Below, piece by piece: positions 1,299-63,215 of a DNA stretch of 64,000 nucleotides. The notes under the pieces were generated by a model. It worked only from the letters and a program-made list of their open reading frames with translations, was not told the origin of the DNA and ran no database searches. Numbering within the stretch: the stretch's first letter is position 1; each line of letters starts with the position of its first letter. A program made the position numbers and the translations under genes. The DNA is from Cytauxzoon felis (lineage: Eukaryota > Apicomplexa > Aconoidasida > Piroplasmida > Theileriidae), in contig JAIQCW010000192.1 of assembly GCA_020283715.1 (NCBI GenBank), positions 1 through 64,000 of the forward strand. Direction: 5' to 3'.

Positions 1299-1690
1299 CC
1301 TGAGGTCGTCTTGCAGACAGCTCTTCTATTTAGTTGTCTCTCCGCTTCCCTGAGATCAGCTACGGGTAGTACACATGAGGTATGATTATCCGGTTTAAAC
1401 TTTTTCTGTTCCTCCGGGTAGACAATATACCGAGGATGTTCTCAGTGAATTCGAGGTGAAATAAATAGAAGAGCTGTATGCAGGACGACCTCAGGTGTAT
1501 CGGCGACTGAAAATAGAAAAGGCAATGCTTGGACCCCGAGTGGAACCTGGAAGCGATCTACGGGAGCTGGAAGGGGAAGTAAATATAGAAGCTGACGGCA
1601 GGACTGACCTCGAGTGGAGAGCTCCATGCAATGGAAAGACAGGGTGTAACAGCAAGTAGAGAAGTTAGTGATTGAACCACAAGTGTAGAG
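1299..1690. repeat. Mosaic repeat copy, intergenic
   Basis: A GC-richer mosaic begins with CACCTGAGGTCGTCTTGCAG and contains the module CTGAGATCAGCTACGGG, a CTGTTCCTCCGGGTAGAC module, GGAAGCGATCTACGGGAGCT and the CCATGCAATGG motif. It ends in ACCACAAGTG, a decayed form of the usual CCTCAGGTG end. Both orientations contain partly open frames. It fills most of the space between the FAINT-like gene and the gene at 2055; the remainder (921-1298 and 1691-2054) is plain AT-rich sequence without a supportable gene. Confidence 0.85.
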
Positions 1691-2054
1691 TATATGTAAG
1701 ACCTTATTCTATCTCTTGTTATGATGGGAGGTATTTTCTTGTTATCTACTATTAGATGGTTTAAAACGATGGTATTGATGTTTTTTAGTGTTATTTGTGA
1801 TTGAAATTTCTGGAAAGTGGTAGATCTGTTGAAATGTGTATGATATTGTTGTTATGTATTGAAATTGATTTTTTTAATTAAATATAATATACACATTTAT
1901 ATAATTTCTGTATAATTTACATTGTATACTAATTATTAATTATAATTTCATGTATAGATCTTATATATATGATTGTAGTTGCATATGTTAGACAGTATGA
2001 GATGGGGATATATTATGAAGATTTAATTGTTGTATAATAATAATTATAGTAATA

Positions 2055-3386
2055 ATGGTAGTTAAATTGATTGGATCATTATATTTATTATTATTTGTTT
2101 ATATATGTATTGATAATTTAGTATTATCTGTACCTGAATTATCATTTATATTATTTACTCATAAAAATGCTATATCAAATTATTATTCTAGAAGAGATAT
2201 GAATGAATTGACTAAGAATGTTGATAATTATATGAATCAATTGAATAAATCGATGATAATACATAGTAATAATGATAATAATAAGATAGAATCACATAAA
2301 TTATATGATAGATTTCATTTATCATATATGAGATTAATGATTGCATTTGATAAATTAACAAAAGATTATGAGATGATATTATGTACAGGATATGATAATA
2401 GTATTATAGAATCATTTAATTTATCATTATCAGAATTTGATATATTACGTAAAGAAACAATATCTATATATACATGTTCATATATAAAATTTATGGATAT
2501 GTTTAATAAAATGAAATCTAATAATGAAATAAATGATGATAATTATTTAAATATATTATATGGTGATTTAGTATTAAAATCACATGCATATATAATATCA
2601 ATGAAATCATTATATAATATTTTAACATTAAGATCAGAAGAATGTTATATTAGTAAAAATTTATATGATGAATTTTATAATATGTATATTGATGTATTAA
2701 TTAAATTACTTAATGATTCTGAATCAAATTTTCATGAATATCCATTTAGAATTAAAAATCAACAAGAATTTGATGAAGTTAAATTACGCTTTAATAAAAT
2801 TAATAATAATCATAAAAATGCTTTAATCGCTATTGATGAATTCTTCTCATCACTTTTATCTAAATATCGCAAGATGAATATACAAATCGATGATGAAAAA
2901 TTTAATAAATCACTCAAGATTATGAAGAAGATACATGTCTATTCTAGTAGTTTTAATATCAACTCTAGTTTATTTTCCATTATAATTATACTAGTCACTG
3001 TAATTACAATCTTAATTAATGAAGTTCCGAACGTAGTGAGGAAGGAGGAATTTTCTCCGAATGTAATGAGGAGAAAATTCCATGCACAACGAGGAAAATT
3101 CTTCGTAGGAAGAAAATTCTCCGACGAGGGAGGAGATGCTGCTGCTGAACGAAGTGAGGGAGGAAGCTCCGAATGTAATGAGGATGATGGATCTGAAGAA
3201 CGAAGTGAACTGAAGGGACTTTTCTATAATAAAGAATTAAAGTATATATATAAAACAACTAAATCTCCTTCTTCACTTCCTTCATCGCTACGCTCTTCAG
3301 ATCCTTCATCACTTCACTTCGTTCAGTTTACTTCCTCACTTCGTTCGTCGTCTTCCATCACCTATGGGGAAATGTGTCTATTATAA
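2055..3386 (+). CDS. Unrecognised protein with N- and C-terminal hydrophobic segments
   Basis: A 443-codon frame starts at an ATG. Residues 1-25 are hydrophobic (signal peptide or anchor). Residues 30-300 are helical, Asn/Asp/Lys-rich with no motif I recognise. A second hydrophobic stretch (SLFSIIIILVTVITILI, about residues 305-322) is a likely membrane segment. After it the frame enters a repeat of the second family (3020-3360) giving ERSEGG and SSLRSSD peptides. A short basic piece (FYNKELKYIYKTTK) between the inverted halves of that repeat may be the remains of the original cytoplasmic tail. The true C-terminus is therefore uncertain. It reads toward LSM1, whose ATG is 16 bases after the stop. 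Confidence 0.65.
   Translation: MVVKLIGSLYLLLFVYICIDNLVLSVPELSFILFTHKNAISNYYSRRDMNELTKNVDNYMNQLNKSMIIHSNNDNNKIESHKLYDRFHLSYMRLMIAFDKLTKDYEMILCTGYDNSIIESFNLSLSEFDILRKETISIYTCSYIKFMDMFNKMKSNNEINDDNYLNILYGDLVLKSHAYIISMKSLYNILTLRSEECYISKNLYDEFYNMYIDVLIKLLNDSESNFHEYPFRIKNQQEFDEVKLRFNKINNNHKNALIAIDEFFSSLLSKYRKMNIQIDDEKFNKSLKIMKKIHVYSSSFNINSSLFSIIIILVTVITILINEVPNVVRKEEFSPNVMRRKFHAQRGKFFVGRKFSDEGGDAAAERSEGGSSECNEDDGSEERSELKGLFYNKELKYIYKTTKSPSSLPSSLRSSDPSSLHFVQFTSSLRSSSSITYGEMCLL
3020..3360. repeat. Second repeat family (ERSEEG/SSLRSSD), in frame
   Basis: The left half repeats GAACGTAGTGAGGAAGG-like units, the right half the inverted form CTTCCTCACTTCGTTCG, separated by about 60 AT-rich bases. The halves could pair as a long hairpin in DNA or RNA. 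The whole stretch stays open in the frame of the gene at 2055. Related sequence occurs at 51040-51240 and 58250-58720, both also inside coding frames. Confidence 0.8.
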
Positions 3387-3402
3387 TTAATATAATGTAA
3401 AT

Positions 3403-4335
3403 ATGCTAAAGGGTCCTAAATCTGATGGAATTTCTAATATAGATTTAAAACCACATTGGATTTGTTCATTAGAAGATGAATTAGGATCTTTAGTATGGGT
3501 CACACTAAGAGATGATACATATTATGTAGGATTATTCAAAACTTTCGATCAATACGGTAATATCGTACTCACAGATGCCATCAAAAAAATCGTACTCTAT
3601 AAAAATAAATCATTCAGCGATATCTATTGCGGTACGTTCCATATCACAATACATATACAACTCCACTCGAGGTCTAATCCACTCCACCTGAGGTCTAATC
3701 ACAACTCTCTTCATCCTGCCGTCAGCTCTTCTAATTACCTATCTCTAAAGAGTATAGCTACTCCCAGAGATCGTGGCGGAGATGAAGGTAGTGATGAAGG
3801 TAGTGATGGATCATCCATCATGGGAATGATGGAAGATGGTTCTAAGGATGTGTTGCATGTAACCTCGAGTGGAATCCCGTAGCTGATCTCGGGGAAGCGA
3901 AGGGGGAAGTAATTGGAAGAAGCCTCCACGGCGAGTGGAAGGAGAGTTAGATTGGACCTCGACTGGAGAGCTGTCTGTAAGACGAAGAGGGTTGTGATTA
4001 GACTTCAGGTGGAGTCGATTGTACTTCGATTATAATATATGATGATTAATAAAATGATTATAGGTTATACGATAATAAGGGGTGAGAGTATATCATATTT
4101 TTGTTCGGTTGATGTGGTGATGTATTTACGTGTGTTTGATTATGAGGGTTATACTAGTGATGATTGGTTATCGCAATTGAAGAGTTCATCATCGAGGGGA
4201 CGTATAGATTCATCTACTAGGGATGTATCGATGGTATTGAAGTATATAGAATTAGAAGAGGCATTGAGATTATTAAAGGAGGAAAGGCAGGGTACTATCA
4301 TTAGGAGTATAGAAGACATATTAATGAATGAATAA
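3403..4335 (+). CDS. LSM1: U6 snRNA-associated Sm-like protein LSm1
   Basis: LSm1 is the subunit that defines the cytoplasmic LSm1-7 ring, which binds the 3' end of deadenylated mRNA and promotes decapping. Exon 1 (3403-3631) carries the Sm1 motif: LEDELGSLVWVTLRDDTYYVG then FDQYGNIVL. Exon 2 (4064-4335) supplies Sm2, starting YTIIRGESISYFCSVD. The join at codon G/GT gives DIYCGYTIIRGES, which lines up with the family pattern DIPRGxFVVRGEN. The product is 166 residues. The single intron, 3632-4063, is 432 bp because it holds a mosaic repeat; unprocessed, exon 1 would run into a repeat-coded tail. An independent clue that the intron is real is the conserved Sm2 motif resuming exactly after the AG. 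Confidence 0.92.
3663..4025. repeat. Mosaic repeat copy inside the LSM1 intron
   Basis: It opens with CCACTCGAGGTCTAATCC and a second CCACCTGAGGTCTAATC, then CTGCCGTCAGCTCTTCTAAT, CTCTAAAGAGTATAGCCACT and GAGATCGTGGCG, a near-palindromic CATCATGGGAATGATGG module (near 3818-3835), a decayed CGTAGCTGATCTCGGGGAAG module, and closes with GATTAGACTTCAGGTGG. The flanks to the intron's own GT and AG are AT-rich host sequence of about 30-40 bp. Confidence 0.85.
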
Positions 4336-4466: not shown

Positions 4467-6428
4467 ATGGATTTTATATATAGAGGTGAGATTTATTTAA
4501 CTCATCAAGATTCATGTGATTATCATAAGGTAAATATTTAGAATTTAATATAAATAATTTATTATATAGGAACTTGAAATTCAATATAGAAAATTTAATG
4601 AATCAGGTATTATACCATGGAGATTAATACCAGTAGAACAAATATCACGTTCATATAGTAATATATCAACCTTAAGTCAAGTAGATACCTTAGTATGTAT
4701 AAATAAATTTTTAGAAAATATTTTTTTTAAATAGTCTGTAGATAAATCAATTTTAAATAAACAAAATGTAGTTACTAGGTATTTATTATTCATTATTATA
4801 ATTTTTTATTTTATTATTTATTCAGATCAAGCTCATTCATTAATAAAACTGAACCTGAATATAAATCAGATGTTAATGATGATATTGAACCTATAATTGA
4901 AGATAATAAAAAAATTATAAATAAAAAATCATATGAATCGCACGATAAAATCATCGAATTTGATGAAAATACATCAATTTATAAAATATTACATCCAAAT
5001 GATGATATTTTCATATCATTACCCGATTGGGTCAAATCCTTACATGATATCATCACACAAATCTGCTATATGCCAATCGCCGAAGATTTCATACAAACAA
5101 AAACTATAAATAATAATAATAATTGTAATAATCTTACCGAAGATACTACACCCGAGGTACAATCCAACTCTGTTCCTCCTGCAGAGAGCTCCTCCAATTC
5201 ACTCCCCGTAAACGGTAATGCCACTCCCGGAGATCGTGGCGAAGTTAATGAGGAGGAACAGGATTTTTCAACCCGGAAGAACGTAAATGTTCAACCCCTA
5301 AGAACAGGAAATCTACCCGGAGGAACAAAAGATGTTAACCCGGAAGAACAAACATCTCTCCCACCTGAGGTCCAATCCACCTCTTCTCCACTCGCCGTGG
5401 AGGCCTCTTCCAATTACCTCCCCGTAAACGGTAGTGCCACTCCCGGAGATCGTGGCGAAGGTGTAGAGAGTAGTACTGGACCTCAAGTGGAAACCTCAAG
5501 TGGACTACCCGTAGCTGATCTCTGGGAGCTGGAGGGGGAAGTAAATAAAGGAGGCCGCCACGGCGAGTGGAATAACTCAGGTGTAACATCAGGTGGAAAG
5601 GAGAGTACTACTGTAACATCAGGTGTAGTATCTAGTGGTAAAGTGGATTGGACAAAGAGTGGAGTTGATGTTAATATATCTAATGATTTAACATCTGGTA
5701 TATTTGTTGAGGAGAGATTAACGATTGAGGGTGTATTAAAGAAATTGATTAGTAATGATTATAAGACTAGTACTGAGGCATTTAGTGATTTGTATATGGT
5801 ATTTATTTATATATTTAGAACATCATCACCTGGTACATTAAATTGGATGAATGCTCAAGATGTATCATCAAAATTAAATGAATTAAGGATTAAGAAAAAT
5901 CTTAAAGATTCATCACCAAATTATAAATCTGATATTACAATTGATATTATTAATCGTCATAATAAATTATCTATGGATGATTTCCAACGTGAAGCTATTG
6001 GTGATGGTCAATTTAGTTCAATTGATAATTTACAACGTTCAATATGTAAGTTTTTATAATTTGATATTATTAAAGACAAAAATATTCATTTCAATTTATT
6101 ATACAGCCATTACTAATAATTTCATTACTGATGATGAACGATTAGAATTTTATGATAATGTTATTCTACTTACACATGAATGCCATCTTGAAGTTTGTTT
6201 CATTAACACACTCTCACTATATATCTATACATTATTATAGTTATTTACCATCTTTGAACATAGCGCAATCTGGAAAATTGTAGGTAATGGTGAAATCGAA
6301 TTAGATGATCGAGCAACCGAACCCAATGTTTTCAGGTTAGTTCATAACCATTTACCTCTACATCATCCAGATCCATGATCAAATGGGTCAAAGATCGAAG
6401 AAATAATTCACCACTCGAACGAACATAA
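4467..6428 (+). CDS. Bromodomain-like protein with in-frame repeat insertion
   Basis: The gene starts at an ATG at 4467 with small introns 4530-4569, 4693-4734, 4779-4825, 6046-6106, and two further ones near 6189-6240 and 6335-6370; all keep frame. A candidate bromodomain is split by an insertion. PDWVKSLHDIITQICYMP (near 5020-5075) resembles helix Z. After the repeat, LTIEGVLKKLISNDYKTSTE then FSDLYMVF and SPGT resemble helices A and B, where bromodomains have L.TI..KL....Y.....F..D..L.F.N....N. The conserved acetyl-lysine-binding Asn is not obvious. The C-terminal 130 residues are unrecognised. Bromodomains read acetylated histone tails; a chromatin role is inference. The repeat lies where the ZA loop would be. 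Confidence 0.6.
5148..5670. repeat. Mosaic repeat copy, in frame in the bromodomain-like gene
   Basis: It begins at ACACCCGAGGTACAATCC and encodes, in frame, PEVQSNS, NGNATPGDRGE, STRKNVNVQPLRTGN, PGGTKDVNPEEQ, then a second PEVQSTS and GSATPGDRGEG, and [14 protein letters not shown]. It ends with several ACATCAGGTG-like ends near 5585-5640. No stop occurs across about 520 bp. Two nested copies appear fused, since the PEVQ and TPGDRG modules each occur twice in the same order. Confidence 0.85.
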
Positions 6429-6445: not shown

Positions 6446-6805
6446 GAGAATAATTCCGCCTGAAGTTACATCATCACCTCGTCTTTCCACTCGCCGTGGA
6501 GGCCTCTTCTAATTACCTATCTCTAAAGAGTATAGCCACTCCCGGAGATCGTGGCGAAGATGAAGGTAGTCATATTGGACCTCAAGTGGAACCCGCAGCT
6601 GATCTCAGGGAAGCGGAGGGGGAGATAATTGGAAAAGGCTCCACGCCTAGTGGAAGAGAAGGTATAGTATACGGGACCTCAAGTGGAAAACCCGTAGCTG
6701 ATCTCAGGGAAGCGGAGGGGGAACTAAATAGAAGAGCTCCATGCAATGGAAAAGATGGACCTCGAGTGTAAGAGGTGAAGATATTGATTGAACTTCATGT
6801 ATACT
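6446..6805. repeat. Mosaic repeat copy, intergenic
   Basis: It lies between the bromodomain-like gene and choline/ethanolamine kinase. The start is decayed (CCGCCTGAAGTTACATCATC) and the end is GATTGAACTTCATGTATACT. Modules in between: CTCGCCGTGGAGGCCTCTTC, CTATCTCTAAAGAGTATAGC, GGAGATCGTGGCG, and two copies of GCTGATCTCAGGGAAGCGGA separated by TCCACGCCTAGTGG. The duplicated module suggests recombination within the element. Confidence 0.85.
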
Positions 6806-6856
6806 AGACAATATTAATTAATATTTTTTTTGTGTGTATTTGTACATGACATAATA

Positions 6857-9301
6857 TTATGAATTATCATTGACATTATAAATGACATTTAATCTTTTGA
6901 GTGCATATCCATGAAAATCGAAATCGATTGTGGATGATACAGTTTGTATAATGGCCCATAATCCCCAATATGCATGTGATGCAAGAAAGAATGGTTGAAT
7001 TTCATCATATAATTGATCAATTTGTTCTTGTATTTTTGATTCATCTTCACAATTATATAATAAATATGATTTTAAAAATAATAATATATCTTCTTTATTA
7101 GGTAATTTAGTCCAATCACAATCAAATCCTATCATTTTATATATCATTATTAATCATTATAACATACCAGCATACTCTATAAAATGATTAGCAATATCAA
7201 AAGCACGCTCCATAAAACATGAATACTCAAAATCAATAAATCTCACATTACCTATCAATCATATGAAAATTTAATGAATATATCAACACGACATAAAAAA
7301 TAATCCTTTTCCAATAAGCAATCTATCGTATGTCCTAATGTAGATTCAACACCTGAGGTCGTCCTGCCGTCAGCTTCTTTAATTACTTCCCCCTTCGCTT
7401 CCCTAGATCAGCTACGGGTGTAAAATCTAATCTCGGCGAGATAAGGATAAATTGACGGAATTCATGTTTGTTCAGATATCTCAATGAATATAAATTGGAA
7501 TGAAGTGAGGTTAAGTATATTAAATACAATCAACAAATTCCTTTTCAATGATGTATTGAGATCAGATATTCATACAATATTCATTGAGATATTTCCATGA
7601 GTTTCCCCAGAAATTCAGGATTTCCTTAAATTTTAGAGGTAAAAATGAAGATAGTGAAATTAGTGATTTTTACCTCAGGTGGAATACCTGGAAGCGATCT
7701 CTGGGAGCTGGAAGGGGAAGTAAATAGAGAAGCTGTCTGCAAGACGATGGAAGGTGGAACAGCGAGTGGAATACAAGGAGTAGAATTGGACCTAGACCTA
7801 ACGGTCGTCGATTGGACTTCGAGTGGAGTATATGATTAGATATATTACTATGAGATACAAACCGCTGGGTGTGATGAGGATATTTCCAGAGAGTAGATCT
7901 CCATGACAGAGTACAACGGGTGAATTCATTTTATTACAATCTTCTTCAATTTGTATTAATATCTATAATGGATATGATTAATGTATGGATTTTATTTTAA
8001 AATAAAGAATACCTTATTTAATGGTGATAGATCAAGTGATTTAAATTTTTTATTGACATCTTCACTATACAATTCACATCTAAAGGAGTTTTTATTTTAA
8101 ATAATTTTTATTTATATTCAAATTACAATTCATAATATCTCCATATAGTTGGCCATAAACTAGACTTTATAATACCTGTATCTGATATCCCATCCTAAAT
8201 ATATAAAATTAATACAACAATATATATAATAAATCATAAATTTACCCCAGAATGTATCAATCTATATAAATCATCCGTTAATGGTACATAATGCAATTTC
8301 TTCAAATTCTGTGATATCTTCACAAAATATTTCGATTTATACATCTCCTCAGATGATAATTCATGACCATCTATCCACTCCTCTATCTGACCATTCTATA
8401 TATATATAATAATAATATCACAATGTATTCAATTCCACCTGAGGTCCAATCCAACTCTCTTCGTCCTGCCGTCAGCTTCTCTATTTACTTCCCCCTCCGC
8501 TTCCCTGAGATCAGCTACGGGTTCCACTTGAGGTTACATCCAACACATCCTTAGCACCATCTTCCATCATTCCCATGATGGATGATCCATCACTACCTTC
8601 ACCACGATCTCTGGGAGTGGCTCTACCCTTCAGGGATAGGTAATTGGAAGAGGCTCCATGCAATGGGAAAGAGAGGTGGATTAGACCTCGAGTGGATGCA
8701 TGTTCCTCCGGGTAGAATTTCTGTTCTTAGGGGTTGAATATTTACGTTCTTCCGGGTTGACATTATATCGAGGATGATCTACGGGAATTCGAGGGGAAGT
8801 AAATAGAGAAGGCTCCACGCCTAGTGGGAGGACCTCGAGTGGAGAGCTGTCTGCAAGACGAAGAGAGGTTGGAAAAGATAGTGATTGTAACCTCATGTGT
8901 AGTATATTGTATGAAATGTATTATATGTATGATGTATGGTGTTAAACAAACATCAAAAGATGCGTAGACTACTTTGGATATTTTATATTTGGAGAGGTGT
9001 TTGCTGATGATTTGTTCTCTTGGTCGATTGATAATTTCTGAAGATTTAACACCTATTTAAATTGTTGATTAGATAAATGTATGAAAATACCGAATAATCT
9101 GACTAGAACTGATATATTATTTTTAATATTAGTTACTTTATACAAGCAATTAGTTATACCTCCTCTAATTTGTTGTAATGAAAGGCATTCATTTACATTA
9201 TCATTAGGTTCAAGTCCAAGTTTAGTGCTTGTTAAATTTACACAGTATTTAAAACACAGCTCTTTAATAGCTGATAAATCTTGACTTTGTTCAACTGACA
9301 T
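6857..9301 (-). CDS. Choline/ethanolamine kinase
   Basis: This enzyme phosphorylates choline or ethanolamine with ATP, the first step of the Kennedy pathway to PC/PE. Exon 1 (9301-9091) holds IRGGITNCLYKVTN and VLVRLFG, the family's N-terminal nucleotide loop. A 38-bp intron follows, then an exon ending ISKVVYASFD at 8952. After a 556-bp intron, NGQIEEWIDGHEL resumes. Later exons give VVLCHGDLLSGNIL (Brenner motif, catalytic Asp) and, after a 611-bp intron ending at 7252, NVRFIDFEYSC (metal-binding choline kinase motif), then HAYWGLWAIIQ near the end. Two introns carry mosaic repeats. Choline versus ethanolamine specificity cannot be told by eye. Short AT-rich introns near 7158-7185 and 7965-8260 were placed by frame. 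Confidence 0.9.
7340..7840. repeat. Two mosaic repeat pieces in a kinase intron
   Basis: Pieces at 7340-7432 and 7666-7840 lie inside the 611-bp intron (7252-7862). The first starts CACCTGAGGTCGTCCTGCCG and stops after GATCAGCTACGGG. The second starts TACCTCAGGTGGAATACCTG, has GGAAGCGATCTCTGGGAGCT and CTGTCTGCAAGACGATGG, and ends near GGACTTCGAGTGG. Between them are about 230 bases of AT-rich, non-repeat sequence with no ORF, so the element appears split by unrelated DNA. Confidence 0.8.
8428..8905. repeat. Mosaic repeat copy in a kinase intron
   Basis: It lies in the 556-bp intron 8396-8951. Order on the plus strand: CCACCTGAGGTCCAATCC, CGTCCTGCCGTCAGCTTCTC, a CCTGAGATCAGCTACGGG module, the near-palindromic CATCATTCCCATGATGG module (8565-8581), CACGATCTCTGGGAGTGGC, CATGCAATGGG, GGATTAGACCTCGAGTGG, the TTCCTCCGGGTAG / TTCTTAGGGGTTGAA module, and a second end GATTGTAACCTCATGTGTAG. 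Confidence 0.85.
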
Positions 9302-9465: not shown

Positions 9466-11193
9466 TTAATATATTGGATTTGTAACAGATACACTATCAC
9501 ATGTACTATTATTAATTGTAAAGTCTTTATTACCCTAATTAATAATAATGTGTCGTAAATATATCAACTTACATAATCTGATAATTGTGTCATATCTAAA
9601 TCATCATCCATCCCTTTACCTTTTAATTCTGTAGTATTATTCAACATCATCTTCATTGTATTCTAAAAATTTACTCTGTAAAATATATTTTTTTATACAC
9701 CAACCTGTAATAATTCGGTTGATAACAATTCTGTAGCTGATAATCTCAAACGTAAATCATGAAACATCATTGATTTATATATTGCATTCAATTCTTTAGA
9801 ATACATTGGCGGTAAATCAGGTATCTATACATTAAATTATATCCACAGTCAATATAAACCTACCAATTTCTCATTTATCAATTTGCACAACTCCTGCATA
9901 CCCCTTGCACCGTCAAAAGGTGTCTTAAATGTAGCCAATTCATACACCAAACAACCCAAAGCCCATATATCCGATGGCCAACTGTACTTTATACCCTGAA
10001 TTTCATATATACCAACCGCAAAGGATAGGCGATAGAGACGTTGTCCAATCACACGAGGTACAATACAACTCTCCTCACGTATTCGTCATACAGACAGCTC
10101 TCCACCTGAGGTTACATCCACCTTATCTTCCCACTAGGCGTGGAGCCTCTTTTAATTACCTATCTCTAAAGAGTAATGCCACTCCCGGAGATCGTGGCGG
10201 TGAAGAAGGTAGTGAGTACATGACCTCAGGTGGACTACCCGCAGCTGATCTCAGGGAAGCGAAGGGGGAAGTAAATAGAAGAGGCCACCACGGCTAGTGG
10301 AAGATAAGGATGTAACCCCAAGTAACAGACGTGGATTGGACCTCAGGTGGAAGTGGAATACAAGGTAGATCGTCCATCATGTGGAGTACCATTATGTCTG
10401 TTTGTATGATTTTACTTACATTGATTAGTTCTGGGCTGAAGTAGTAGGGTGTGCCGATGATTGTTCCGGTTTTATCGCTGGTTTGATTGAGTGATTTGCT
10501 AACACCGAAATCGCAGAGTCGTATATTCTTATCTGAGTCGATTAGTATATTTAATGATTTCAAATCTAATAGATGATATTAGCATATCATTTGTATTACC
10601 TCTATGTAATGTATGGCTTTTATGGAGGAATTTAAGGGCTAGGAGTATTTGTGTTACCCAAATTAATATTCTACTCTCTTTTATAGGTTTATTTATTGTC
10701 TTATGACGTGCTATAAATCGATGTAAATCACCACCTATAAATTTATGTTAGAGTTTCATATTTTCATTCCTGTATCAACATACCCTTGCAGTATTCAGTG
10801 ATGATACAGAGATGTTTACCTTCAATAAAGCTACCCAAATACTTCACGATAAATGGATGTCTAACCTTTGCTATAATCTATGAGTATATAATCAATTATA
10901 GATGTTAAATTTACATCAATTTCGTTCATGCATAAATTACGTTCAACATCAGAGAGTAGTGTAATGTCTATACGTTTGCGCGCGACACTATAATGATTAT
11001 ATACTATTAATACTATATCAAACTTACATATTACCAGCATCATTGCCCATGAGGGTTGTATTACCATATGCCCCTTTACCTAATGGACGGATCTCTTTAT
11101 AGCCTTTAATTATATCCAAACATGTTACAGCCTATAGTTGGCGTCTCGTATAAATTTCTACAATAAACAAACGTTATTACTTGTCCTTGTCAT
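9466..11193 (-). CDS. NIMA-related (NEK-like) protein kinase
   Basis: A Ser/Thr kinase split by about eight introns. Exons in order give LGKGAYGNTTL (glycine loop), VARKRIDIT (probable catalytic Lys), HPFIVKYLGSFIEGKHLCII (strands 4-5), GGDLHRFI, then LHRDLKSLNILID (catalytic loop, split by a short intron inside HRD), CDFGVSKSL, GTPYYFSPELI (activation segment), and SDIWALGCLVYELATFKTPF. GTPYYxSPE plus SDIWALGCxxYEL is the NEK signature. The start is a 7-codon exon at 11193 followed by a 40-bp intron. A 424-bp intron (9996-10419) separates PELIN from GIKYSWPSDIW and contains a mosaic repeat. The last exon is uncertain: reading through a GTAAGT gives a stop at 9564; splicing a 38-bp intron gives the end used here. 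Confidence 0.88.
10045..10375. repeat. Mosaic repeat copy in the NEK-like kinase intron
   Basis: Starts near CACACGAGGTACAATACAAC, contains CACCTGAGGTTACATCC, CCACTAGGCGTGGAGCC, CTCTAAAGAGTAATGCCACT, GGAGATCGTGGCGG, GCTGATCTCAGGGAAGCGAA, CCACCACGGCTAGTGG, and ends GGATTGGACCTCAGGTGGAA. It is one of the better preserved copies, with both canonical ends. Confidence 0.87.
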
Positions 11194-55364: not shown

Positions 55365-55885
55365 TATATCTTTTCCACCTGAGGTCTTTCCACTCGCCGT
55401 TCCACCTGAGGTTACAATCCTACTCTCTTTTCCACTAGCCGTGGAGGCCTTCTCTATTTATTTCCCCTTCCAGCTCCCATAGATCGCTTCCAGGTTCCAC
55501 TTCCACTTGAGGTTACATCTATTATAGTTGAGATCTTGTTCCTCCGGGTTGAATTTTCCTGTTCTTCCGGGTTTACATCGTTAGTTCCACTAGGCATGGA
55601 GCCTCTTCTATTTACTTCCCCCTCCGCTTCCCTGAGATCAGCTTCGGGTAGTCCACTTGAGGTTACATCCGACACATCCTTAGCACCATCTTCCATCATT
55701 CCCATGATGGATGATCCATCTCTACCTTCATCACTACCTTCACGCCACGATCTCTGGGAGTGGCTCTACTCTTTAGAGATAGGTAATTGGAAGAGCTCTC
55801 TGCAAGAGAAGGAGAGGTGGATTGGATCTCAGGTGGTGGACGAAGAGATGTGATTGTAACCTCGGGTGGAATATCGAGTGTAGAA
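55365..55885. repeat. Large mosaic repeat copy, intergenic
   Basis: Starts TTCCACCTGAGGTCTTTCCA with CTCGCCGTTCCACCTGAGGT, includes CCCATAGATCGCTTCCAGGT, the TTCCTCCGGGTTGAATTTTC / TTCTTCCGGGTTTACATCG module, CCCTGAGATCAGCTTCGGGT, near-palindrome CATCATTCCCATGATGG (55693-55709), CACGATCTCTGGGAGTGGC, and ends GATTGTAACCTCGGGTGGAA. It contains nearly every module class. Confidence 0.87.
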
Positions 55886-55893: not shown

Positions 55894-58800
55894 TTAGTTC
55901 CATCTTTTGATATTTTTGATTCTGGTTTTATTTTTTCGATTGGATCCTCCGAATGATTTTTTACGTTTGATTTCTCTATTTAATTCTATTGGTGATTTAG
56001 TATTGCTATTGCTATTGTATTGAAAATTTCGATTATAATTAGGATTATTATAAGTATTGATTAAGAATTGATATAGATCATTATTATTATAATTGGGTAA
56101 TTGTTTTTTAAAATTAATAAATGAATTTAAAAATTTATTATTAAAAGTAAAAATATTATTATTATTATAAATATAAATAAATGTATTAATATTATTTAAT
56201 TCATTAATAAAATCAAAATCATGTGTAACTAATATATAACCACCTTTATAAATATCATTTAATAAATTTTTTAATACATTTTTCATATATAAATCTAAAT
56301 GATTTGTAGGTTCATCTAATAATATATAATGTGATTTTTTTAAAAATAATAATGATAATAATAATCTTGATCTTTCACCATATGATAATTCTGATACTAA
56401 TATATTCATAAAATCTGTTAAATGAAAACATGCCATATAATTATTTATCATTTTATCATCCATATCATTATTATCATCCATTATAATATCATATATCAAA
56501 TTATATATAGTACCATTATAATTCAATAAATCATTACAATTCTGTGAATAATAATTCACTTTCAATCCCTTAGATGATTTCACACCACCACCCAATATAT
56601 AAGGATATTCCAATGATACATTATCATCATCACCTGAGGTTATATTCCTGCCGTCAGCTTCTCTATTTATTTTCCCCTTCGCTTCCCTGAGATCAGCTAC
56701 GGGTATTCCACTTGAGGTTACATCCTCACTACCTTCACGTTCTTCCGGGTTGACATATTTTGTTCCTCCGGGTAGATTTCCTGTTCTTAGGGGTTGAACA
56801 TCTACGTTCTTCCGGGTTGACATCCTTTGTTCCTCCGGGTTAATTACACCTGAAGTCCAATCATCACCTCCTCTTTCCACTGCCGTGGTGCCTTCTCCAC
56901 TTGAGGTTACATTCCTGCCGTCAGCTTCTTTATTTATCTCCCCTTCCAGCTCCCGTAGATCGCCTCCAGGTTCCACTCGAGGTCTTGTAGTAACTACACT
57001 TTCCATTCCACTAGGCGTGGTGCCTTCTCTATTTACCTCACCTCGACTCCCATAGATCGTCTCGGATATTTCGCCACGATCTCCGGGAGTGGCATTACTC
57101 TTTAGAGATAGGTAATTGAAAGAGCTGACGGCAGGATGGACCTCAGGTGGAGAGGCTCCACGCCTAGTGGAAGAAGAGTCGTATTGGATATCGAGTGGAG
57201 AGGATTGTGCATCGTGTATATATTTATTTATGGTAGATTGGTATAATAATTTGAGTAGAGTGCTTTTACCGATACCGTTATTACCTAATAGTATGATTCT
57301 TTCATTGAAGTAGATATTGAGATTGAGATTATTGAAGATATTATAGACGATGAGATTATTGATATTGAAGATTATACCTTGTGGATGATATAATGTAGAT
57401 GATTTAAGATTAATATTATTAGCTAATCGATTCATATTATTAATATTATTAAATAATAGATTATCATATTCATGTGTATATTTATTAATAGGATTACCTA
57501 ATAATTTATTTAATTGTAGATTATAATTATTTAATAGATTATTTTTTTGTTCAATAATAATTTTTTTTAGATTTAAGTGTACATTTATTATATTTTAATA
57601 AATTATTTAAATCATTATTTAATATATTAATATTTTTTTTAATTTATTAATTTTTGTATTATTAATTAATTTTTGTATAGAAATATTTTTTAAAAAATTA
57701 TTAAAATTACCATTAAATAATTGTATATTACCATTACCTATTAATTGTAATATATTATTACATAAATTATTTAATATATTTATATCATGACTAATTAATA
57801 ATATAGTTAAATTATTTGATGACATTAAATATTTTAATATATTTATAAAAAAATTTTTTGTATCTATATCTAAATTATTTGTTGGTTCATCTAATAATAA
57901 TAAATTTGGTGAATGTAATAATAATAATAATAAATATATACGCATTTTATAACCATCACTTAATGTATTAATTTTTTTATTTAATTTATCTTCTATTGAA
58001 AATAATATTATTAATCTTTTTATTAATAATTTTATATCATTATATTTTTTATTTATTATTTTATTTTCATTATTATATAATTTTAATATATCTTTATATA
58101 TCTTTTTATCATATTTATTTAATATATATATATTATCTTCTATATATCTCATTACATTATTACACATTATATAATATTCAAATGTATTATTTATCAATTC
58201 ATTCACCGTATAATCACCAGGCATATCATTCATATAATCCTGCCTCATGTATCCTATTCCGATGGGTGAAGGAGGACCTGAAGAGCGTAGCGATGAAGGA
58301 AGTATGTCCGACGTAGGAGGACGATCTCCCGAACGTAGTGAGGAAGATAGTTCCGACGAAGGAGGAACGTCCGACGAACGAAGTGAGGGAAGTTCCGAAC
58401 GAAGTGAGGAAAAAGGAAATTTTTCCGAACGAAGTGAGGGAAGAAAATTCTTCGATGAACGAGGAAAATTCTCCGAAGGAGGGAGTTCCAACGAGCGTAG
58501 CGAGGAAGGAAGTTCAGAGTGAAATGAGGAGGGAAGATGAGAGAAGGATTGAAGATCTTTCGAGGTTGATGAAAGTCTAGAGGATGTATCGATATTGTGG
58601 CCACTTCCTGAAGATACCGAGTATCGTCCATCTCCTAAAGATAATTCACTTCCTCCTTCCTCACTTCGTTCACTCCTTCCTCCTACGTCGGACAAACTTC
58701 GTTCGTACAAACTTCGCTCTTCGATAAAATCATGGATATTTGGGCCGATATAATCATACATTGACATATATTTATATAATTTCCTATATAAACTAGAATT

Positions 58801-59829
58801 AGATATAAAAGAATTATCAATATCCTTAACATTATAACTCAAATCAATAGAATAAGATATTAAAGGATTAGATAATGTTGTACCAGATAAATGATTATAT
58901 ATTACATCCAATAATGTAGTCTTACCAGCACCATTATTACCAATCATACCAACACATTCACCAACATTTAATTTAAATGATACATTATCAAATAATATAC
59001 GATCACCCAATGATATATCAACAGATCTAACATCTAATAATACACCACTAGTAATCTGACTAGATGATGGAAATATATTAGTTATACCCGGAAAAGATCT
59101 ACGAAAACTCTCAATTGAATCATCCAATGAATTATCCATATCCATAGAAGATATAATATCAGCACCTTCTATACTCGATGTTCCACTCGAGGTTACAACC
59201 TTGTTTTCGTCTTGCAGACGGCTTCCTTTATTTACCTCCCCCTTCGCTTCCCTGAGATCAGCTGCGGATAGTCCACTTGAGGTCCAGTACTTATCACCAC
59301 CTTCCATTCCACTCGCCGTGGCGGCCTCTCTATTTACCTCACCTCGACTCCCATTGATCGTCTCGGATTCTTCGCCACGATCTCCGGGAGTGGCATTACT
59401 CTTTAGAGATAGGTAATTAGAAGAGCTCTCTGCAAGAGAAGGAGAGGTGGATTGGACCTCAGGTGGAGAATAGCTATCTACGAGAGGAAGATTATGTATT
59501 CCGGTTGGTGATGTTTCGTCTTGCAGACAGCTTCTTCTATTTAGTTCTCCCTTCGCTTCCCGTAGATCAGCTACGGGTAGTAAGGTTGAGGAAACATCTC
59601 GATTCTTTGATGAAATTGTGATTACTTTTGAGTAATTGCGATATTTAGTCCAGGCATAACGTCGATGTCTAGTGTCATTTAAGTTATTGATCCAAGTAAC
59701 AGCGTAATTAATCGACGTTCGTGTCCAAGCGGTACTCTTAATATTATACAATCCATTCTTCGTGAATAATGGATTCTTAACAGCAAAAATTAAAGACAAA
59801 TTTATTATAATGAGTTTAAAAATTGTCAT
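55894..59829 (-). CDS. ABC-F ATPase with signal peptide, repeat-riddled, frameshifted
   Basis: Two frames (59829-57619 and 57435-55894) are two halves of one ABC-F protein with twin ATPase domains. NBD1: Walker A IGNNGAGKTTLLD, LSDGYKMRIYL (signature), LLLLDEPTNNLDI (Walker B), LLISHDINIL (switch His). NBD2: LLGNNGIGKSTLLK, LSYGERSRLLL, YILLDEPTNHLDL, ILVTHDFDFI. No membrane helices beyond the N-terminus, as in ABC-F translation factors. The start MTIFKLIIINLSLIFAVKNP is a signal peptide, suggesting apicoplast targeting. Between the halves two A-runs (57633-57640 and 57561-57568) shift frame by +1 and back; between them the third frame is open. Three in-frame repeat blocks lie at 59180-59585, 58250-58720 and 56625-57200. 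Confidence 0.88.
56625..57200. repeat. Mosaic repeat copy, in frame in NBD2 of the ABC-F gene
   Basis: Coding strand yields [96 protein letters not shown]. It falls after Walker A and the first strand of NBD2, in the region before the Q-loop; about 190 residues. The host sequence resumes with LEYPYILGGGVKSSKGLKV. Confidence 0.85.
58250..58720. repeat. Second repeat family, in frame in NBD1 of the ABC-F gene
   Basis: Coding strand starts SDVGGRSERSEEGG and continues into SSLRSLELPPS, SSLRSSDVPPSS and SSLRSSGPP. The ERSEEG and SSLRSS parts are inverted relative to each other, as at 3020-3360. Host sequence resumes with IGIGYMRQDYMNDM, near the Q-loop. Confidence 0.85.
59180..59585. repeat. Mosaic repeat copy, in frame near the N-terminus of the ABC-F gene
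   Basis: Coding strand: [80 protein letters not shown]. Lies between the targeting leader and the first ABC domain, where extra length would be tolerated. Confidence 0.86.
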
Positions 59830-60188: not shown

Positions 60189-61335
60189 ATGCGTTTTTTC
60201 CATTGTATATCGAGTGGATTTACTCGTTATATTTTTGGTAGTAGATTACAATCATCTACTTTATCAGAGTCATTCTATAAGTTTGGGGTAAGTTTAATAC
60301 TTATATTTCATTATAATACTAACAGAAGGAAAATTTTGGTTACAACTATCGCAATTTCAGTACAAATTTTAAAGATAATGAATTGTTAAACGATTGGCGT
60401 AATTATCGTGAAGTGTCATCAAAATTACTTTCTAGTAGTGTTAAACTTAAATATTCTTACGATCCTGAAAAATTTATTAAATATCCCAAATCATACGATC
60501 AGAAATTAAAAGAGGATGCTAAATTTACCAAATGTCTGAGTCTTAGCCCACTTTTCACACATTATGCTAATCCATTGTCTATGCTTACATTCGCTACCAA
60601 ATATCTACTAAGCTTCAGATTCCTCTTCATATATATGGCCAGAACCACATTCCAAGTTTGTTTACACTAAAGAATATCACAGTTAATATATTGTCTACTA
60701 CACTCGAGGTCCAATCACTACTTTCACCTCCTCCACTCGCCGTTGTCTTGCAGACAGCTTCTCTATTTACTTCCCCTCGGATTCCCGTATATCATCCTCG
60801 GTATAATGTCTACCCAGAAGAACGTAAATGTTCAACCCCTAAGAACAGGAATTCTACCCGGAGGAACAGACCTCACCTGATGTTATAATCAATGTTCCAC
60901 TAGCCTGAAGGCTTCTCCACCTGAGGTCGTCTTGCAGACAGCTCTTCTAATTACCTATCTCTAAAGAGTATAGCCACTCCCGGAGATCGTGGCAGAAGGT
61001 AGTGTTGTAACCTCAGGTGGAACCCGTAGCTGATCTCAGGGAAGCGGAGGGGAAGTAAATAGAAGAGCCACCACGGCTAGTGGAATGAAGAGTAGGAATG
61101 TAACCTCGAGTGGATTTTGATGATTGAAATATAAATTTATATTATATAGGCGGTTCGTCCTTTATTAGCATTTTGTTTATTTGGTGAGATAATGAAATTG
61201 GTATTGGCGAATATAAGTGGTGCATTACCGGCATATTTATTTTCATTTGTTCTTGCATTTGAAGTATTATATTTTTTTTTACAGTGTTTTATATCATATA
61301 CATTTTTGATGATGTTTTTTACAGTAATGTTTTAA
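60189..61335 (+). CDS. Small membrane protein, probably mitochondrial, family not recognised
   Basis: Three exons: 60189 to about 60289, about 60328-60655, and 61150-61335. The first 30 residues (MRFFHCISSGFTRYIFGSRL) resemble a mitochondrial presequence. The middle is polar and Lys-rich (YPKSYDQKLKEDAKFTKC). The last exon, reached across a 494-bp repeat-bearing intron (60656-61149), encodes AVRPLLAFCLFGEIMKLVLA and a strongly hydrophobic run (YLFSFVLAFEVLYFFLQCFI), one or two membrane helices. The join at CAA|GCG keeps frame and puts the stop at 61335. An inner-membrane complex subunit is possible; I cannot name it. Confidence 0.65.
60700..61120. repeat. Mosaic repeat copy in the intron of the small membrane protein gene
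   Basis: CACTCGAGGTCCAATCACTA, CCACTCGCCGTTGTCTTGCA, GACAGCTTCTCTATTTACTT, ATCATCCTCGGTATAATGTC, AACCCCTAAGAACAGG, CTCTAAAGAGTATAGCCACT, CGGAGATCGTGGCAGAAG, GCTGATCTCAGGGAAGCGGA, CCACCACGGCTAGTGG, right end TGTAACCTCGAGTGGA. Two copies seem fused: the right-end/left-end pair CTCACCTGATG / CCACCTGAGG occurs near 60870-60920. Confidence 0.86.
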
Positions 61336-61366
61336 TTATGATTATATTATAATAAATTAAAATAAT

Positions 61367-62861
61367 ATGTTAAAGAGATTAGTAGAAGAGGATGTATTGA
61401 TATTATCATCAATGCGTATATGTATAGGATTACGTATAATAGAATGTGAGAATGGTATATTAACAACATGTCGTATAAAATATAAAATAATTGGTGATGA
61501 ATTAAAATATATTTATATTAATAATATAACAGATATAAAATTAATAAAAAATTTTTAAAGAATATTTATATATAAAATGTGGTAATAATATATTTAATAT
61601 AATTACAGATAATTTAAATATATTTTATAATGAATTATTACGTTTAATTAAATTAAATAATGAATTTATAATTTTAACTAAATCTGATAATATAGGTGGA
61701 TTATCTAGAATATTATCATCATATAAAGATCGTAAAATTGAATCTGAATCATTACATACTATAGCATTACATGATCTTGATGTACTTAAAAATAAATGCC
61801 AACAATTACTCAATCTTATTAAAAAAGTTAAAAAAAATAATACAAATAATGGTAATATTACATCATTATTCAAACAATTAGGTATCAATAATGTATTCCA
61901 ATCTATCGATAATCAAACAAATCTTATGTCTACCAAAAGTACTCTACCTGAGGTCCAATCCAACTCTGATCCACCTGAGGTCCAATCCAACTCTGATCCA
62001 CCTGAGGTCCAATCCAACTCTGATCCACCTGAGGTCCAATCCACCTCGTCTTCCACTAGGCGTGGAGCCTCTTCTAATTTGTTATCCCTAAAGGGTAGAG
62101 CCACTCCCGGAGATCGTGGCGAAGGTAATTTGGAAGAACAGGAAATGTTAACCCCTAAGAACGAAGATGATAAACCCGGAAGAACAGAGATTGTCAACCC
62201 GGAGGAACAGAAAATGTCTACCCCTAAGAACGAAAATGTTCAACCCGGAGGAACAGAGAATGTTAACCCGGAAGAACAGGAAGTTAGTGATTTAACCTCA
62301 AGTGGAAGTGGAATACCTGGAAGCGATCCACGGGAGCTGGAAGGGGAAGTAAATAAGGAAGCTGTCTGCAAGACGACCTCAAGTGGAACTGCGAGTGGAC
62401 TTCAGGTGGAGACAGGTTCATGTGTACTTGATATACATCCAAATGACGGTACATTGATTGAGGTATTGGATAGATTATTGGATGTGAATGAGATTGTATT
62501 ATTAATGGATTTATATTGTTGTGTTAATAAATTGGTTTTGTGTGATTTATATAGTCCAAATGATTTATATAATTCAGTAATGAAATTGACATCTATGGGT
62601 AATTATAAATTGATTAGTATTAAAGGTATGCAATTAATTACTAAAAGTAAAAGTAATGAATCAGATTATTATAAAGATGTTATTGATATTATTAATCAAC
62701 ATGGTCCAATCACAACATTTGAATTCTCTAAAATTAAAGATATCTCAATCACATTAGCCGAAGTCAAAATCCATATCGCCGAAACTCTAGGACTCATCGT
62801 ACGTGATGAATCAATCGAACAAGTACTATATTATAAAAATAATCTACTCAAAAGTAACTAA
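61367..62861 (+). CDS. VPS36: ESCRT-II subunit VPS36, with in-frame repeat and a probable 1-nt frameshift
   Basis: VPS36 links ubiquitinated cargo and ESCRT-I/III in endosomal sorting. The first frame (MLKRLVEEDVLILSSMRICI ... ILTTCRIKYKI) resembles a GLUE domain. It stops after KLIKNF at an A6T5 run (61546-61556), but one base out of frame the text continues KEYLYIKCGNNIFNIITDN, so a one-base homopolymer error is likely. A helical segment follows (HDLDVLKNKCQQLLNLIKK), then an in-frame mosaic repeat (61945-62420), then the winged-helix region: EIVLLMDLYCCVNKLVLCDL, KLISIKGMQLITKS, GPITTFEFSKIKDISITLAE, HIAETLGLIVRDESIEQVLY. The family ends ...R(D)DSVEG..FY.N, close to this. A downstream alternative exon after GTAACT is possible but enters repeat. 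Confidence 0.82.
61945..62420 (+). repeat. Mosaic repeat copy, in frame in VPS36, with a 27-bp tandem array
   Basis: Left end CTACCTGAGGTCCAATCC. The 27-bp unit CCTGAGGTCCAATCCAACTC... begins at 61947, 61974, 62001 and 62028 (peptide PEVQSNSDP). Then SSTRRGASSNLLSLKG, ATPGDRGEG, alternating NPEEQ and STPKNE modules, [22 protein letters not shown], right end GGACTTCAGGTGGAG. GAG|GTC at the left and CAG|GTG at the right are both in phase 0. Confidence 0.88.
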
Positions 62862-62914
62862 TTTTATACCAAATTATATTACATTATACTCAGTAATCCT
62901 TCGTGATATCAACT

Positions 62915-63215
62915 CTGAAGTACAATCCAACCCTTATCCACCCGAGGTTACAACCACCTTGCATTCTCTTGCAGAGAGCTCTTCCAATTCACTCCCCGTA
63001 AACGGTAATGCCACTCCCAGAGATCGTGGCGGAGGTTGAAGTCAGTGATTGGACCTCAAGTGGAAGTGAATTACCCGTAGCTGATCTCAGGGAAGCGGAG
63101 GGGGAGATAAATAAAGAGAGCTGTCTGCAAGACCGACCTCAGGTGGAGAGATGTCAAGACAAGAAAAGGACCTCAGGTGACAGTGTAAGAGAGGTAGATG
63201 AAACTTCAAGTGGAG
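62915..63215. repeat. Mosaic repeat copy, intergenic
   Basis: CTCTGAAGTACAATCCAACC, CCACCCGAGGTTACAACC, CTCTTGCAGAGAGCTCTTCC, CTCCCCGTAAACGGTAATGC, GAGATCGTGGCGG, GCTGATCTCAGGGAAGCGGA, CTGTCTGCAAGACCGACC, CTCAGGTGGAGAGATG, and a final ACTTCAAGTGGAG. Lies between VPS36 and the convergent small gene at 63226. Confidence 0.86.

What the first reader, a model, noticed from the sequence alone, without database searches (positions are those of the whole stretch)
1299..63215. A dispersed modular mosaic element, probably undescribed, occupies introns, exons and intergenic DNA
Over 20 copies share a vocabulary of short modules (GAGGTCCAATCC ends; CTCTAAAGAGTATAGCCACT + GAGATCGTGGCG; GCTGATCTCAGGGAAGCGGA; GGAAGCGATCTACGGGAGCT; CTGTCTGCAAGACGA or GCTGACGGCAGGACG; CCACGGCGAGTGG; AACCCGGAGGAACA / CCCCTAAGAACAGG). 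Module order and orientation vary, as if copies grow and rearrange by recombination between modules. They are GC-richer than host DNA and have no transposase or reverse transcriptase ORF. I know of no named piroplasm repeat with this behaviour.
Basis: partly seen in the sequence, partly recalled or inferred. Interest (0 to 1): 0.95.

Follow-up and report, generated by a model that had tools for sequence, protein, structure and literature searches.

The report
Hairpin mosaic repeats inside parasite genes
The genome of the cat parasite Cytauxzoon felis is sown with what look like a few thousand copies of a small hairpin-forming mosaic DNA element that sits outside genes, inside introns and, read in one frame, inside the protein-coding parts of ordinary genes, something known mainly from bacteria.

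Summary
The repeat is real. The genome is Cytauxzoon felis: published cf76 primers match exactly. The window holds 27 element clusters. The core 21-mer GCCACTCCCRGAGATCGTGGC occurs 2,071 times genome-wide, 0 in the reversed control; I extrapolate to about 3,600 elements and 11% of the genome. In all 116 clusters of the 264-kb sample that have both modules, a left module (L) precedes a right one (RA/RB) in the same orientation. Both carry an almost invariant 11-nt loop (GATCTNNGGGA or its complement); the R stem and a hairpin beside the L core covary. Six exchangeable mini-palindromes fill the slots independently; linkage fades within about 20 bp. No target-site duplication was detected, though ends are fuzzy. 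Four transposase/integrase families are absent; the only RVT_1 protein is telomerase. Of 120 L modules with an R, 28 (22 ORFs) lie in long ORFs, all in one sense frame, R in phase. They interrupt Vps36 and ABCF; the vaccine antigen cf76, cloned from cDNA, carries one. It works like bacterial REPINs plus Rickettsia palindromic elements but belongs to neither. The spreading enzyme is unknown.

The parts
1295..1687 (.). palindromic R'-R type element
3662..4013 (+). L-R element, not open in frame
5147..5627 (+). two L units with R modules, in frame inside ORF 5070-6059
6455..6770 (+). L-RA-RA element, not open in frame
7348..7827 (.). type II element: inverted R modules flanking a ~250 bp AT-rich insert
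8434..8901 (-). element, not open in frame
10101..10351 (+). L-RA element, not open in frame
12670..13194 (-). multi-R element with tandem modules, open in the +0 frame over 591 nt (coding status ambiguous)
35388..35542 (+). element in frame inside the MMS19 ORF 33062-36400; only its L module is recognised by the models, so it is not among the 28 counted
40440..40641 (-). L-RB element, not open in frame
41115..41340 (-). L-RB element, not open in frame
42413..42646 (+). L-RA element, open in frame but not in a long ORF
42979..43017 (-). single R module
43368..43410 (+). single R module
44007..44302 (-). L-R element, not open in frame
45519..45769 (-). L-RA element, not open in frame
47476..47718 (+). 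strongest foldback copy examined: 82-nt inverted arms, 93% complementary, folding z = -18.8
49429..49515 (+). R module with right arm
50183..50270 (+). R module with right arm
52680..52921 (+). L-RA element, folding z = -6.1
53504..53763 (-). L-RB element, not open in frame
55374..55870 (-). multi-module element just downstream of ORF 55894-57435, not open in frame
56629..57199 (-). element in frame inside the second ABC domain of the ABCF gene (ORF 55894-57435)
59182..59578 (-). element in frame in the N-terminal part of the ABCF gene (ORF 57619-59829)
60916..61114 (+). L-RA element, not open in frame
61943..62410 (+). element in frame inside the Vps36 (EAP30) ORF 61548-62861, with 27-bp and 23-bp tandem units
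62937..63214 (+). L-RA element, not open in frame

Best explanation
It is a non-autonomous, hairpin-based mobile repeat of the C. felis nuclear genome. The conserved unit is an inverted pair of modules, L and R, each with a near-invariant 11-nt loop (GATCTNNGGGA in R, its complement in L) inside a short stem, enclosed in arms built from exchangeable mini-palindromes. Shown: the architecture, covariation of the R stem and of a second hairpin beside the L core, loop invariance in coding and noncoding copies, inverted pairing, independent slot words, loss of linkage within about 20 bp, no detected target-site duplication, and frame-locked copies in long ORFs. Inferred: (1) the hairpins form when the DNA is single-stranded; (2) an unidentified trans-acting protein recognises the loops, so only copies with intact loops spread or persist; (3) new copies arise without target-site duplication, by ssDNA-type transposition or replication template switching; (4) short-tract conversion or template switching between copies swaps the slot words; (5) selection removes exonic insertions unless they are sense, in one frame and a multiple of three, so the survivors add mosaic, probably disordered peptides to host proteins.
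For: Copy number: 136 L and 190 R modules in 264 kb, 0 in the reversed control; 2,071 exact cores genome-wide, 1,016 and 1,055 on the two strands. Inverted pairs: of 161 neighbouring loops within 400 bp, 136 are inverted in the L-R sense; 295 of 326 loops have such a neighbour, 94% intact against 81% of 31 singlets, p = 0.004. Hairpins: 72 double-change cells against 22 in shuffles, slid partners pair in 27-48% of cells against 97%; R stem ends complementary in 149 of 169; folding z < -3 in 70 of 101 elements against 0 of 60 flanking controls. Loop constraint: arms with 4 of 20 mismatches have 0.14 loop mismatches where an equal rate predicts 1.8 (19 of 47 anchors in that bin had no loop-like partner and were set aside). 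Mosaic: a recognised word in 118 of 120 left and 114 of 120 right slots, matches 21 of 112 against 24.5 +/- 4.2 shuffled; linkage 0.18 at 1-3 bp to 0.006 beyond 20 bp. Exons: 28 of 120 in ORFs of 600 nt or more in the +0 frame, 0 in +1/+2, 1 antisense; L-R phase 0 in 28 of 28 against 41/26/25 in the rest; 22 distinct ORFs. Translation: cf76 primers lying inside the element were used on cDNA, and the 2,172-bp ORF equals its genomic span.
Against: Movement was never seen: no DNA-level empty site was found, and the one informative paralogue pair carries an element in the same intron in both copies. No candidate enzyme was found, but only five families were tried. The stem that encloses the L loop (GCCAC/GTGGC) hardly varies, so covariation does not test it; an unguided consensus fold of the L module was weak (-1.0 kcal/mol) and did not contain it; two of the five covariation measures did not exceed shuffles clearly (189 and 43 of 500). 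Near-invariant loops in otherwise diverged copies are also what a host-maintained site would show. Sharp termini are lacking, so the target-site test is weak.
Confidence: 0.6

Rival explanations
1. Host-maintained regulatory or architectural site: each copy is a hairpin or binding site for a parasite DNA- or RNA-binding protein (for example an ApiAP2 factor; name recalled, not tested) and is kept by selection, not by selfish spread.
For: Loops stay intact where arms have diverged; the core is as invariant in noncoding copies; very high density in a compact genome.
Against: Copies inside ORFs of housekeeping genes, two or three within one ORF, and near-random orientation of the remaining copies between coding stretches of one strand (26 sense, 20 antisense) look like insertion rather than placement; the MMS19 and ABCF relatives seen lack the peptides.
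Confidence: 0.25
2. Conventional MITE or foldback transposon left by an extinct DNA transposon, later scrambled by gene conversion.
For: Inverted-repeat architecture, short size (median 271 bp over 121 copies), no protein of its own recognised.
Against: No target-site duplication detected (lengths of 5 or more in 8 of 121 against 4.3 expected; weak test because ends are fuzzy), arm words do not match within a copy, no rve or DDE_3 hit in the genome.
Confidence: 0.15
3. Spread mainly by recombination: ectopic gene conversion or template switching between palindromes seeds and homogenises copies without any transposition enzyme.
For: Independent slot words, linkage lost within about 20 bp, no enzyme found in the families tried, no duplication of target sites detected.
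Against: Does not by itself explain thousands of dispersed sites or why the 11-nt loop, not the arms, is invariant.
Confidence: 0.35
4. The in-frame copies are really introns that are spliced out, or the mosaic is an assembly artefact of 454 reads.
For: Some copies do lie in introns; the published C. felis assembly is 454-based, and cf76 starts at nearly the same contig position there (6540) as here (6543).
Against: Frame and L-R phase are locked only in long ORFs (28 of 28); cf76 was amplified from cDNA with primers inside the element and its ORF is as long as its genomic span; linkage loss at 10-20 bp is far below read length (inference).
Confidence: 0.04

Closest known systems
REPINs (REP doublets forming hairpins) of bacteria, PMC3116915 (passages)
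   Same: Two invariant short motifs as inverted repeats around a variable spacer, hairpin with compensatory changes, doublets better conserved than singlets, high copy number
   Different: Nuclear genome of a eukaryote, many copies inside genes, not extragenic; no Y1 (RAYT-type) transposase found; arms are a mosaic of exchangeable words; sequence relation to any REP not tested
Rickettsia palindromic elements (RPE), PMC2229807 and PMC2635572 (passages)
   Same: Palindromic elements found between genes and also in frame inside conserved protein genes, adding a peptide insert
   Different: RPEs are 105-146 bp and bacterial; here median 271 bp, modular, thousands of copies by extrapolation, also in introns
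Bacterial interspersed mosaic elements (BIMEs), PMC2817692 (start of abstract in the search listing only)
   Same: Palindromic units in composite repetitive structures
   Different: Bacterial; linked to REP-associated tyrosine transposases by that paper's title
PARCELs, PMC2996958 (outline and abstract)
   Same: Palindromic DNA that also encodes a peptide, thought to shuffle within genomes, some in eukaryotic microbes
   Different: 25-residue tandem arrays in ORFs without assigned function, not single dispersed inserts in housekeeping genes and noncoding DNA
Mitochondrial GC clusters and repetitive hairpin-forming elements, PMC4478555 (listing), PMC2800124 (passages)
   Same: Hairpin-forming repeats, also found inside some genes, spread by unknown means
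   Different: Organellar, shorter; no frame-locked set of exonic copies in the passages read
MITEs and foldback elements (general knowledge)
   Same: Short, non-autonomous, inverted repeats
   Different: No target-site duplication detected, no fixed ends, no transposase found in the families tried

Membership tests
REPIN | Motif occurs as inverted doublets far more than singly | tested here: met
   295 of 326 loops have a neighbour within 400 bp; 136 of 161 neighbour pairs inverted
REPIN | Doublets better conserved than singlets | tested here: met
   94% against 81% intact loops, p = 0.004, only 31 singlets
REPIN | Hairpin with compensatory changes | tested here: met
   the stem around the L loop itself is nearly invariant and so untested
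REPIN | Extragenic location | tested here: not met
   28 of 120 L modules with an R lie in long ORFs, others in introns
REPIN | Associated RAYT (Y1) transposase | tested here: not met
   PF01797 finds nothing in the genome, searched exon by exon; controls ring in 5 of 14
Rickettsia palindromic element | In-frame inserts in conserved protein genes as well as copies elsewhere | tested here: met
Rickettsia palindromic element | Size of about 105-146 bp | tested here: not met
   5th-95th percentile 157-506 bp, median 271, over 121 copies with both ends called
Rickettsia palindromic element | Sequence homology to an RPE family | not tested
   no RPE sequence was fetched
MITE | Target-site duplication | tested here: inconclusive
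   not detected at 121 elements (5 or more letters: 8 against 4.3 expected), but true ends are uncertain
MITE | Fixed terminal inverted repeats | tested here: not met
   arm words differ left and right within copies; flank composition shows no sharp edge
MITE | Related transposase in the genome | tested here: inconclusive
   rve, DDE_3, Y1_Tnp, Phage_integrase not found; other transposase families not searched
SINE/LINE | Non-telomerase reverse transcriptase in the genome | tested here: not met
   the RVT_1 hits lie in one telomerase protein; no tRNA gene in the window
PARCEL | Tandem 25-residue amphipathic repeat domain | not tested
   no PARCEL model was run; the inserts read look like single mosaic inserts, not 25-residue arrays
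Introner | Element supplies the intron's splice borders | tested here: inconclusive
   in the one paralogue pair examined both introns have GTAAGT and AG outside the element; no RNA data

The most novel reading that the evidence does not exclude
A eukaryotic counterpart of REPINs: a nuclear, hairpin-doublet replicator moved by an as yet unknown enzyme of a piroplasm. Its exonic copies (about 500 by rough extrapolation from 25 of 168 clusters) act as a genome-wide, recombining stock of translated peptide cassettes in one reading frame, inserted into housekeeping proteins and a vaccine antigen alike, so that selfish DNA is a standing source of new protein sequence in this parasite.
Probability: 0.4. 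Interest if true: 0.92.

Novelty: new variant of a known kind. Interest (0 to 1): 0.82.

Why it matters
Passages of a survey of 64 apicomplexan genomes report no transposable elements in C. felis (PMC9141347), yet by extrapolation roughly a tenth of this genome belongs to one structured repeat family. In-frame palindromic DNA inside conserved genes is known from Rickettsia; here it appears at larger scale in a eukaryotic nucleus, with translation supported by published cDNA cloning of cf76. It makes two open questions testable: how enzyme-less hairpin repeats spread, and how often selfish DNA becomes protein sequence. It may also affect gene prediction, proteomics and antigen choice in C. felis, because cf76 carries such an insert and antibodies to shared element peptides could cross-react between unrelated proteins (the last point is inference).

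Tried and rejected
Conventional transposon with target-site duplications: direct-repeat lengths at 121 elements resemble shuffled pairs (5 or more letters in 8 against 4.3), with the limit that ends are fuzzy. Matching arms within a copy, as a fresh hairpin insertion would show: left and right slot words match no more than by chance, although single copies such as 47476-47718 are near-perfect. DNA-level empty sites from self-alignment: only one locus pair was informative, and both members carry an element, in opposite orientation with different R modules. Known RNA family: no Rfam match at gathering threshold in the window; four sub-threshold matches to miRNA families in L025/L028 were dropped as far below their gathering scores. 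Close protein relatives of the exonic inserts: the Vps36 ORF from its second start found nothing at E <= 0.1. Spread to other taxa: the 18-mer core gave 1 viral and 8 prokaryote contigs, below the roughly 15 that I calculate by chance for the prokaryote set. Protein-level purifying selection inside the insert: synonymous 29 against nonsynonymous 64 in coding L modules and 47 against 160 in noncoding ones is suggestive, not decisive; coding copies do prefer GGA over AGA (25 of 28 against 37 of 75, p = 2e-4). An unguided consensus fold of the L modules was weak. The sample of 264 kb was not random: C9 and C8 were chosen because they were long and listed many hits, so genome-wide figures were rescaled by exact core counts (96 in the sample, 2,071 in the genome). 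On rechecking I corrected the claim that L always precedes R without exception, the claim that the L loop's own stem covaries, and the target-site verdict (now inconclusive, which raised the MITE rival from 0.12 to 0.15); the exonic extrapolation fell from about 600 to about 500.


Full report
WHAT THE GENOME IS. The window is C113:1-64000 of an 8.62-Mb, 181-contig assembly. The cf76 primers published for Cytauxzoon felis match exactly: the outer forward primer once in the genome and not in the reversed control, and the ORF start, the fragment-2 forward primer and the fragment-1 reverse primer in the same 3-kb locus. The fragment-2 reverse primer was not found there; by its published distance it lies beyond the end of that locus. 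The ORF starts at position 6543 of its contig; the published position is 6540. The MMS19 proteins of T. equi and T. orientalis are only 25-30% identical to the window's over the whole alignment. Taxon: Theileriidae.

THE REPEAT IS REAL AND VERY ABUNDANT. All listed modules recur. Profile models built from 92 L, 118 RA and 45 RB seeds find 136 L, 134 RA and 56 RB non-overlapping modules in 264 kb and none in reversed sequence, grouped in 168 clusters: 27 in the window, 99 in 140 kb of C9, 42 in 60 kb of C8. In all 116 clusters that hold both modules an L is followed by an R of the same orientation; 18 are R'-R palindromes and 34 hold only L or only R modules. The core 21-mer with one degenerate base has 1,016 + 1,055 exact copies in the genome and 0 in the reversed control. 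The sample is denser than the genome (96 exact cores in 264 kb). Rescaling gives about 3,600 elements, and the 16.9% of sample bases covered becomes about 11% of the genome (extrapolation mine).

ANATOMY. Reading in the L-to-R direction: outer boundary words TCCACCTGAGGT (and variants), a slot filled by one of six mini-palindromes, TCTTCTAATTACCTAT, a hairpin CTCTAAAGAG, the core GCCACTCCCRGAGATCGTGGC, a variable spacer (sometimes tandem 23-mers), ACCTCAAGTGGA, then RA (GCTGATCTCAGGGAAGCGGAGGGGGAAGTAAATAGA) or RB (AGCGATCTACGGGAGCTGGAAGGGGAAGTAAATAGA), a right slot from the same six words inverted, and the inverted boundary words. L and R are partial inverse complements, so the whole can fold back. 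The copy at 47476-47718 has 82-nt arms, 93% complementary, z = -18.8. Over 101 elements the median folding z is -4.2, with 70 below -3, against 0 of 60 flanking controls. Elements above 450 bp or without both ends called were left out of that count; the 13 coding ones fold less strongly (median -3.2).

THE CONSERVED UNIT IS AN INVERTED PAIR OF LOOPS. In 133 distinct L modules the small hairpin beside the core exists mainly with CTC/GAG, CCG/CGG and CCC/GGG stems: 72 cells with changes on both sides against 22 +/- 3 shuffled, 97% of cells paired against 27-48% when the partner is slid by one to three columns. Against this: the number of pairs with double changes (3) and of further pair types (10) did not clearly exceed shuffles (189 and 43 of 500), shuffles ignore relatedness, the stem around the L loop (GCCAC/GTGGC) hardly varies and so is untested, and an unguided consensus fold was weak and lacked it. 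The R module is a stem around the loop GATCTNNGGGA. Of 192 anchors, 169 have a loop with at most 4 of 9 mismatches, and 149 of these have complementary 3-nt ends: GCT/AGC 95, AGC/GCT 31, GAT/ATC 15, AAC/GTT 5, GAC/GTC 2 and one not printed. RA and RB are two lineages, so the first two forms partly reflect descent. Measured from anchors that do not include it, the L core varies at 0.036 per site against 0.095 for the anchor, most of it at one G/A position. R loops stay intact while the adjoining arm diverges (anchors without a loop-like partner were set aside, few at low divergence but 61 of 77 at 6 mismatches, where many are likely chance hits). Of 161 neighbouring loops within 400 bp, 136 are inverted in the L-R sense; 295 of 326 loops have a neighbour, and the 31 singlets are less often intact (81% against 94%, p = 0.004).

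THE REST IS A MOSAIC. A recognised word fills 118 of 120 left slots and 114 of 120 right slots, and left and right choices are independent (21 matches of 112; shuffles 24.5 +/- 4.2). In the 132 ungapped L modules normalised mutual information above shuffles is 0.18 at 1-3 bp, 0.16 at 4-7 bp (partly the stem pairs), 0.08 at 8-12 bp, 0.015 at 13-20 bp and 0.006 beyond. Copies related by simple descent would keep long-range linkage, so either exchange works on tracts of about ten bases, or sites are near a constrained equilibrium; the block-wise replacement of whole words favours exchange (inference). No target-site duplication was detected at 121 elements, but their ends fade out, so the test is weak. 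A second subfamily, R'-insert-R, carries a conserved AT-rich insert of about 250 bp (10 copies aligned; 40 scored of 401 candidates in the genome).

COPIES IN LONG ORFS ARE FRAME-LOCKED. Of 120 L modules with a same-strand R within 450 bp, 44 are open through the element in the frame that reads L as NYLSLKSxATPGDRG, and 28 of these lie in ORFs of at least 600 nt: 22 distinct ORFs, 25 of 168 clusters. No copy is open in the other two sense frames, and one long ORF reads an element antisense. R is in phase with L in 28 of 28; in the other 92 the phases are 41/26/25. Part of the sense bias is a stop-codon filter: outside long ORFs 16 are open in the sense frame and 7 antisense; the excess over that filter is p = 0.016, treating copies as independent. 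In 15 further loci, two of which lie in C8, 6 of 21 elements are in long ORFs, all in the same frame, one of them with R out of phase by a simple search. Between coding stretches of one strand, 16 elements are in-frame sense copies in long ORFs; of the remaining 46, 26 are sense and 20 antisense. Coding copies prefer GGA at the glycine of TPGDRG (25 of 28 against 37 of 75) and more often carry at least one 23-mer unit (14 of 28 against 11 of 76).

WHICH GENES. In the window the in-frame copies lie in ORF 5070-6059 (no Pfam family), MMS19 (L module only, not among the 28), two ORFs that look like halves of an ABCF ATPase, and Vps36/EAP30. In the ABCF gene one insert follows the Walker A region of the second ABC domain; the T. 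equi protein has a different stretch there, so the site looks like a tolerant loop. In Vps36 the insert of about 155 residues lies upstream of the winged-helix part that matches human Vps36. In cf76 the insert spans the border of the published N-terminal and central fragments; primers for both lie inside it and were used on cDNA, and the 2,172-bp ORF equals its genomic span 6540-8711, so this copy is in mature mRNA. [quoted passage not shown]

INTRONIC COPIES AND THE EMPTY-SITE QUESTION. Two paralogous genes on C9 (84% and 74% identical in two blocks) share what reads as an intron with GTAAGT and AG borders; each holds an element, but in opposite orientations and with different R modules, while what reads as their next intron (about 50 bp) has none. 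This suggests either inversion and exchange in place or independent gain at a favoured site. No pair with an occupied and an empty site was found in the sample. At protein level T. equi and T. orientalis MMS19 lack the peptide, but alignment there is weak.

MECHANISM. I favour a REPIN-like unit: two inverted loops recognised by a protein, copied without duplicating the target, with later exchange of words among copies. The structure and the patterns are shown; the protein, the copying step and its timing are not. No Y1 transposase, DDE_3, rve or tyrosine recombinase was found in searches that read exon by exon, and the only RVT_1 protein has a telomerase RNA-binding domain. The main alternatives are a host-maintained binding site and spread by recombination alone.

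LITERATURE SEEN. PMC3748084: passages and sections 7 and 17. PMC9141347, PMC6310948, PMC10058880, PMC2635572, PMC2229807, PMC3116915, PMC2800124: passages. PMC2996958: outline and abstract. PMC4478555 and PMC2817692: search listing. None of the passages on C. felis that I saw mentions a dispersed repeat; my searches were (open-access papers only), so prior description elsewhere is not excluded.

CAVEATS. The assembly is probably the 454-based one (positions agree within 3 bases for cf76). ORF status is mechanical, without RNA evidence except cf76. Sample contigs were not random. Copies within one ORF or one recent duplication are not independent. Module and word names are mine.

Noticed in passing
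window 22878-26717 and 27868-31740: Two long single-exon ORFs with internal tandem duplications (69-89% identical DNA blocks) and no element inside; the first has a FAINT domain, the second was not scanned.
   Followed up: partly
L026:894-1363 (C8:30894-31363) and other places in the genome: A conserved AT-rich insert of about 250 bp flanked by inverted R modules forms a second subfamily (40 scored of 401 candidates); its origin is unknown and no Rfam family reached its gathering score in the window copy.
   Followed up: partly
window 61943-62410; L011:8765-9200: Tandem 23-bp units (AACCCGGAGGAACA / CCCCTAAGAACAGG) are read in successive frames without stops in coding copies and are more frequent there (14 of 28 against 11 of 76 with at least one unit).
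   Followed up: partly
C9:62174-63810 and C9:124615-126233: Paralogous genes whose shared intron carries the element in opposite orientation with different right modules.
   Followed up: yes
L029 (C56:73693-74436 region): Telomerase reverse transcriptase gene, the only protein with an RVT_1 match in the assembly.
   Followed up: yes
window 61950-62042: Four boundary words at exact 27-bp spacing, read as PPEVQSNSD units at the start of the Vps36 insert, suggesting slippage growth of arms.
   Followed up: no
whole genome G000: An 18S primer site was not found with up to 2 mismatches and the SSU rRNA family search gave no answer in three tries; ribosomal genes may be missing from this assembly.
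   Followed up: no
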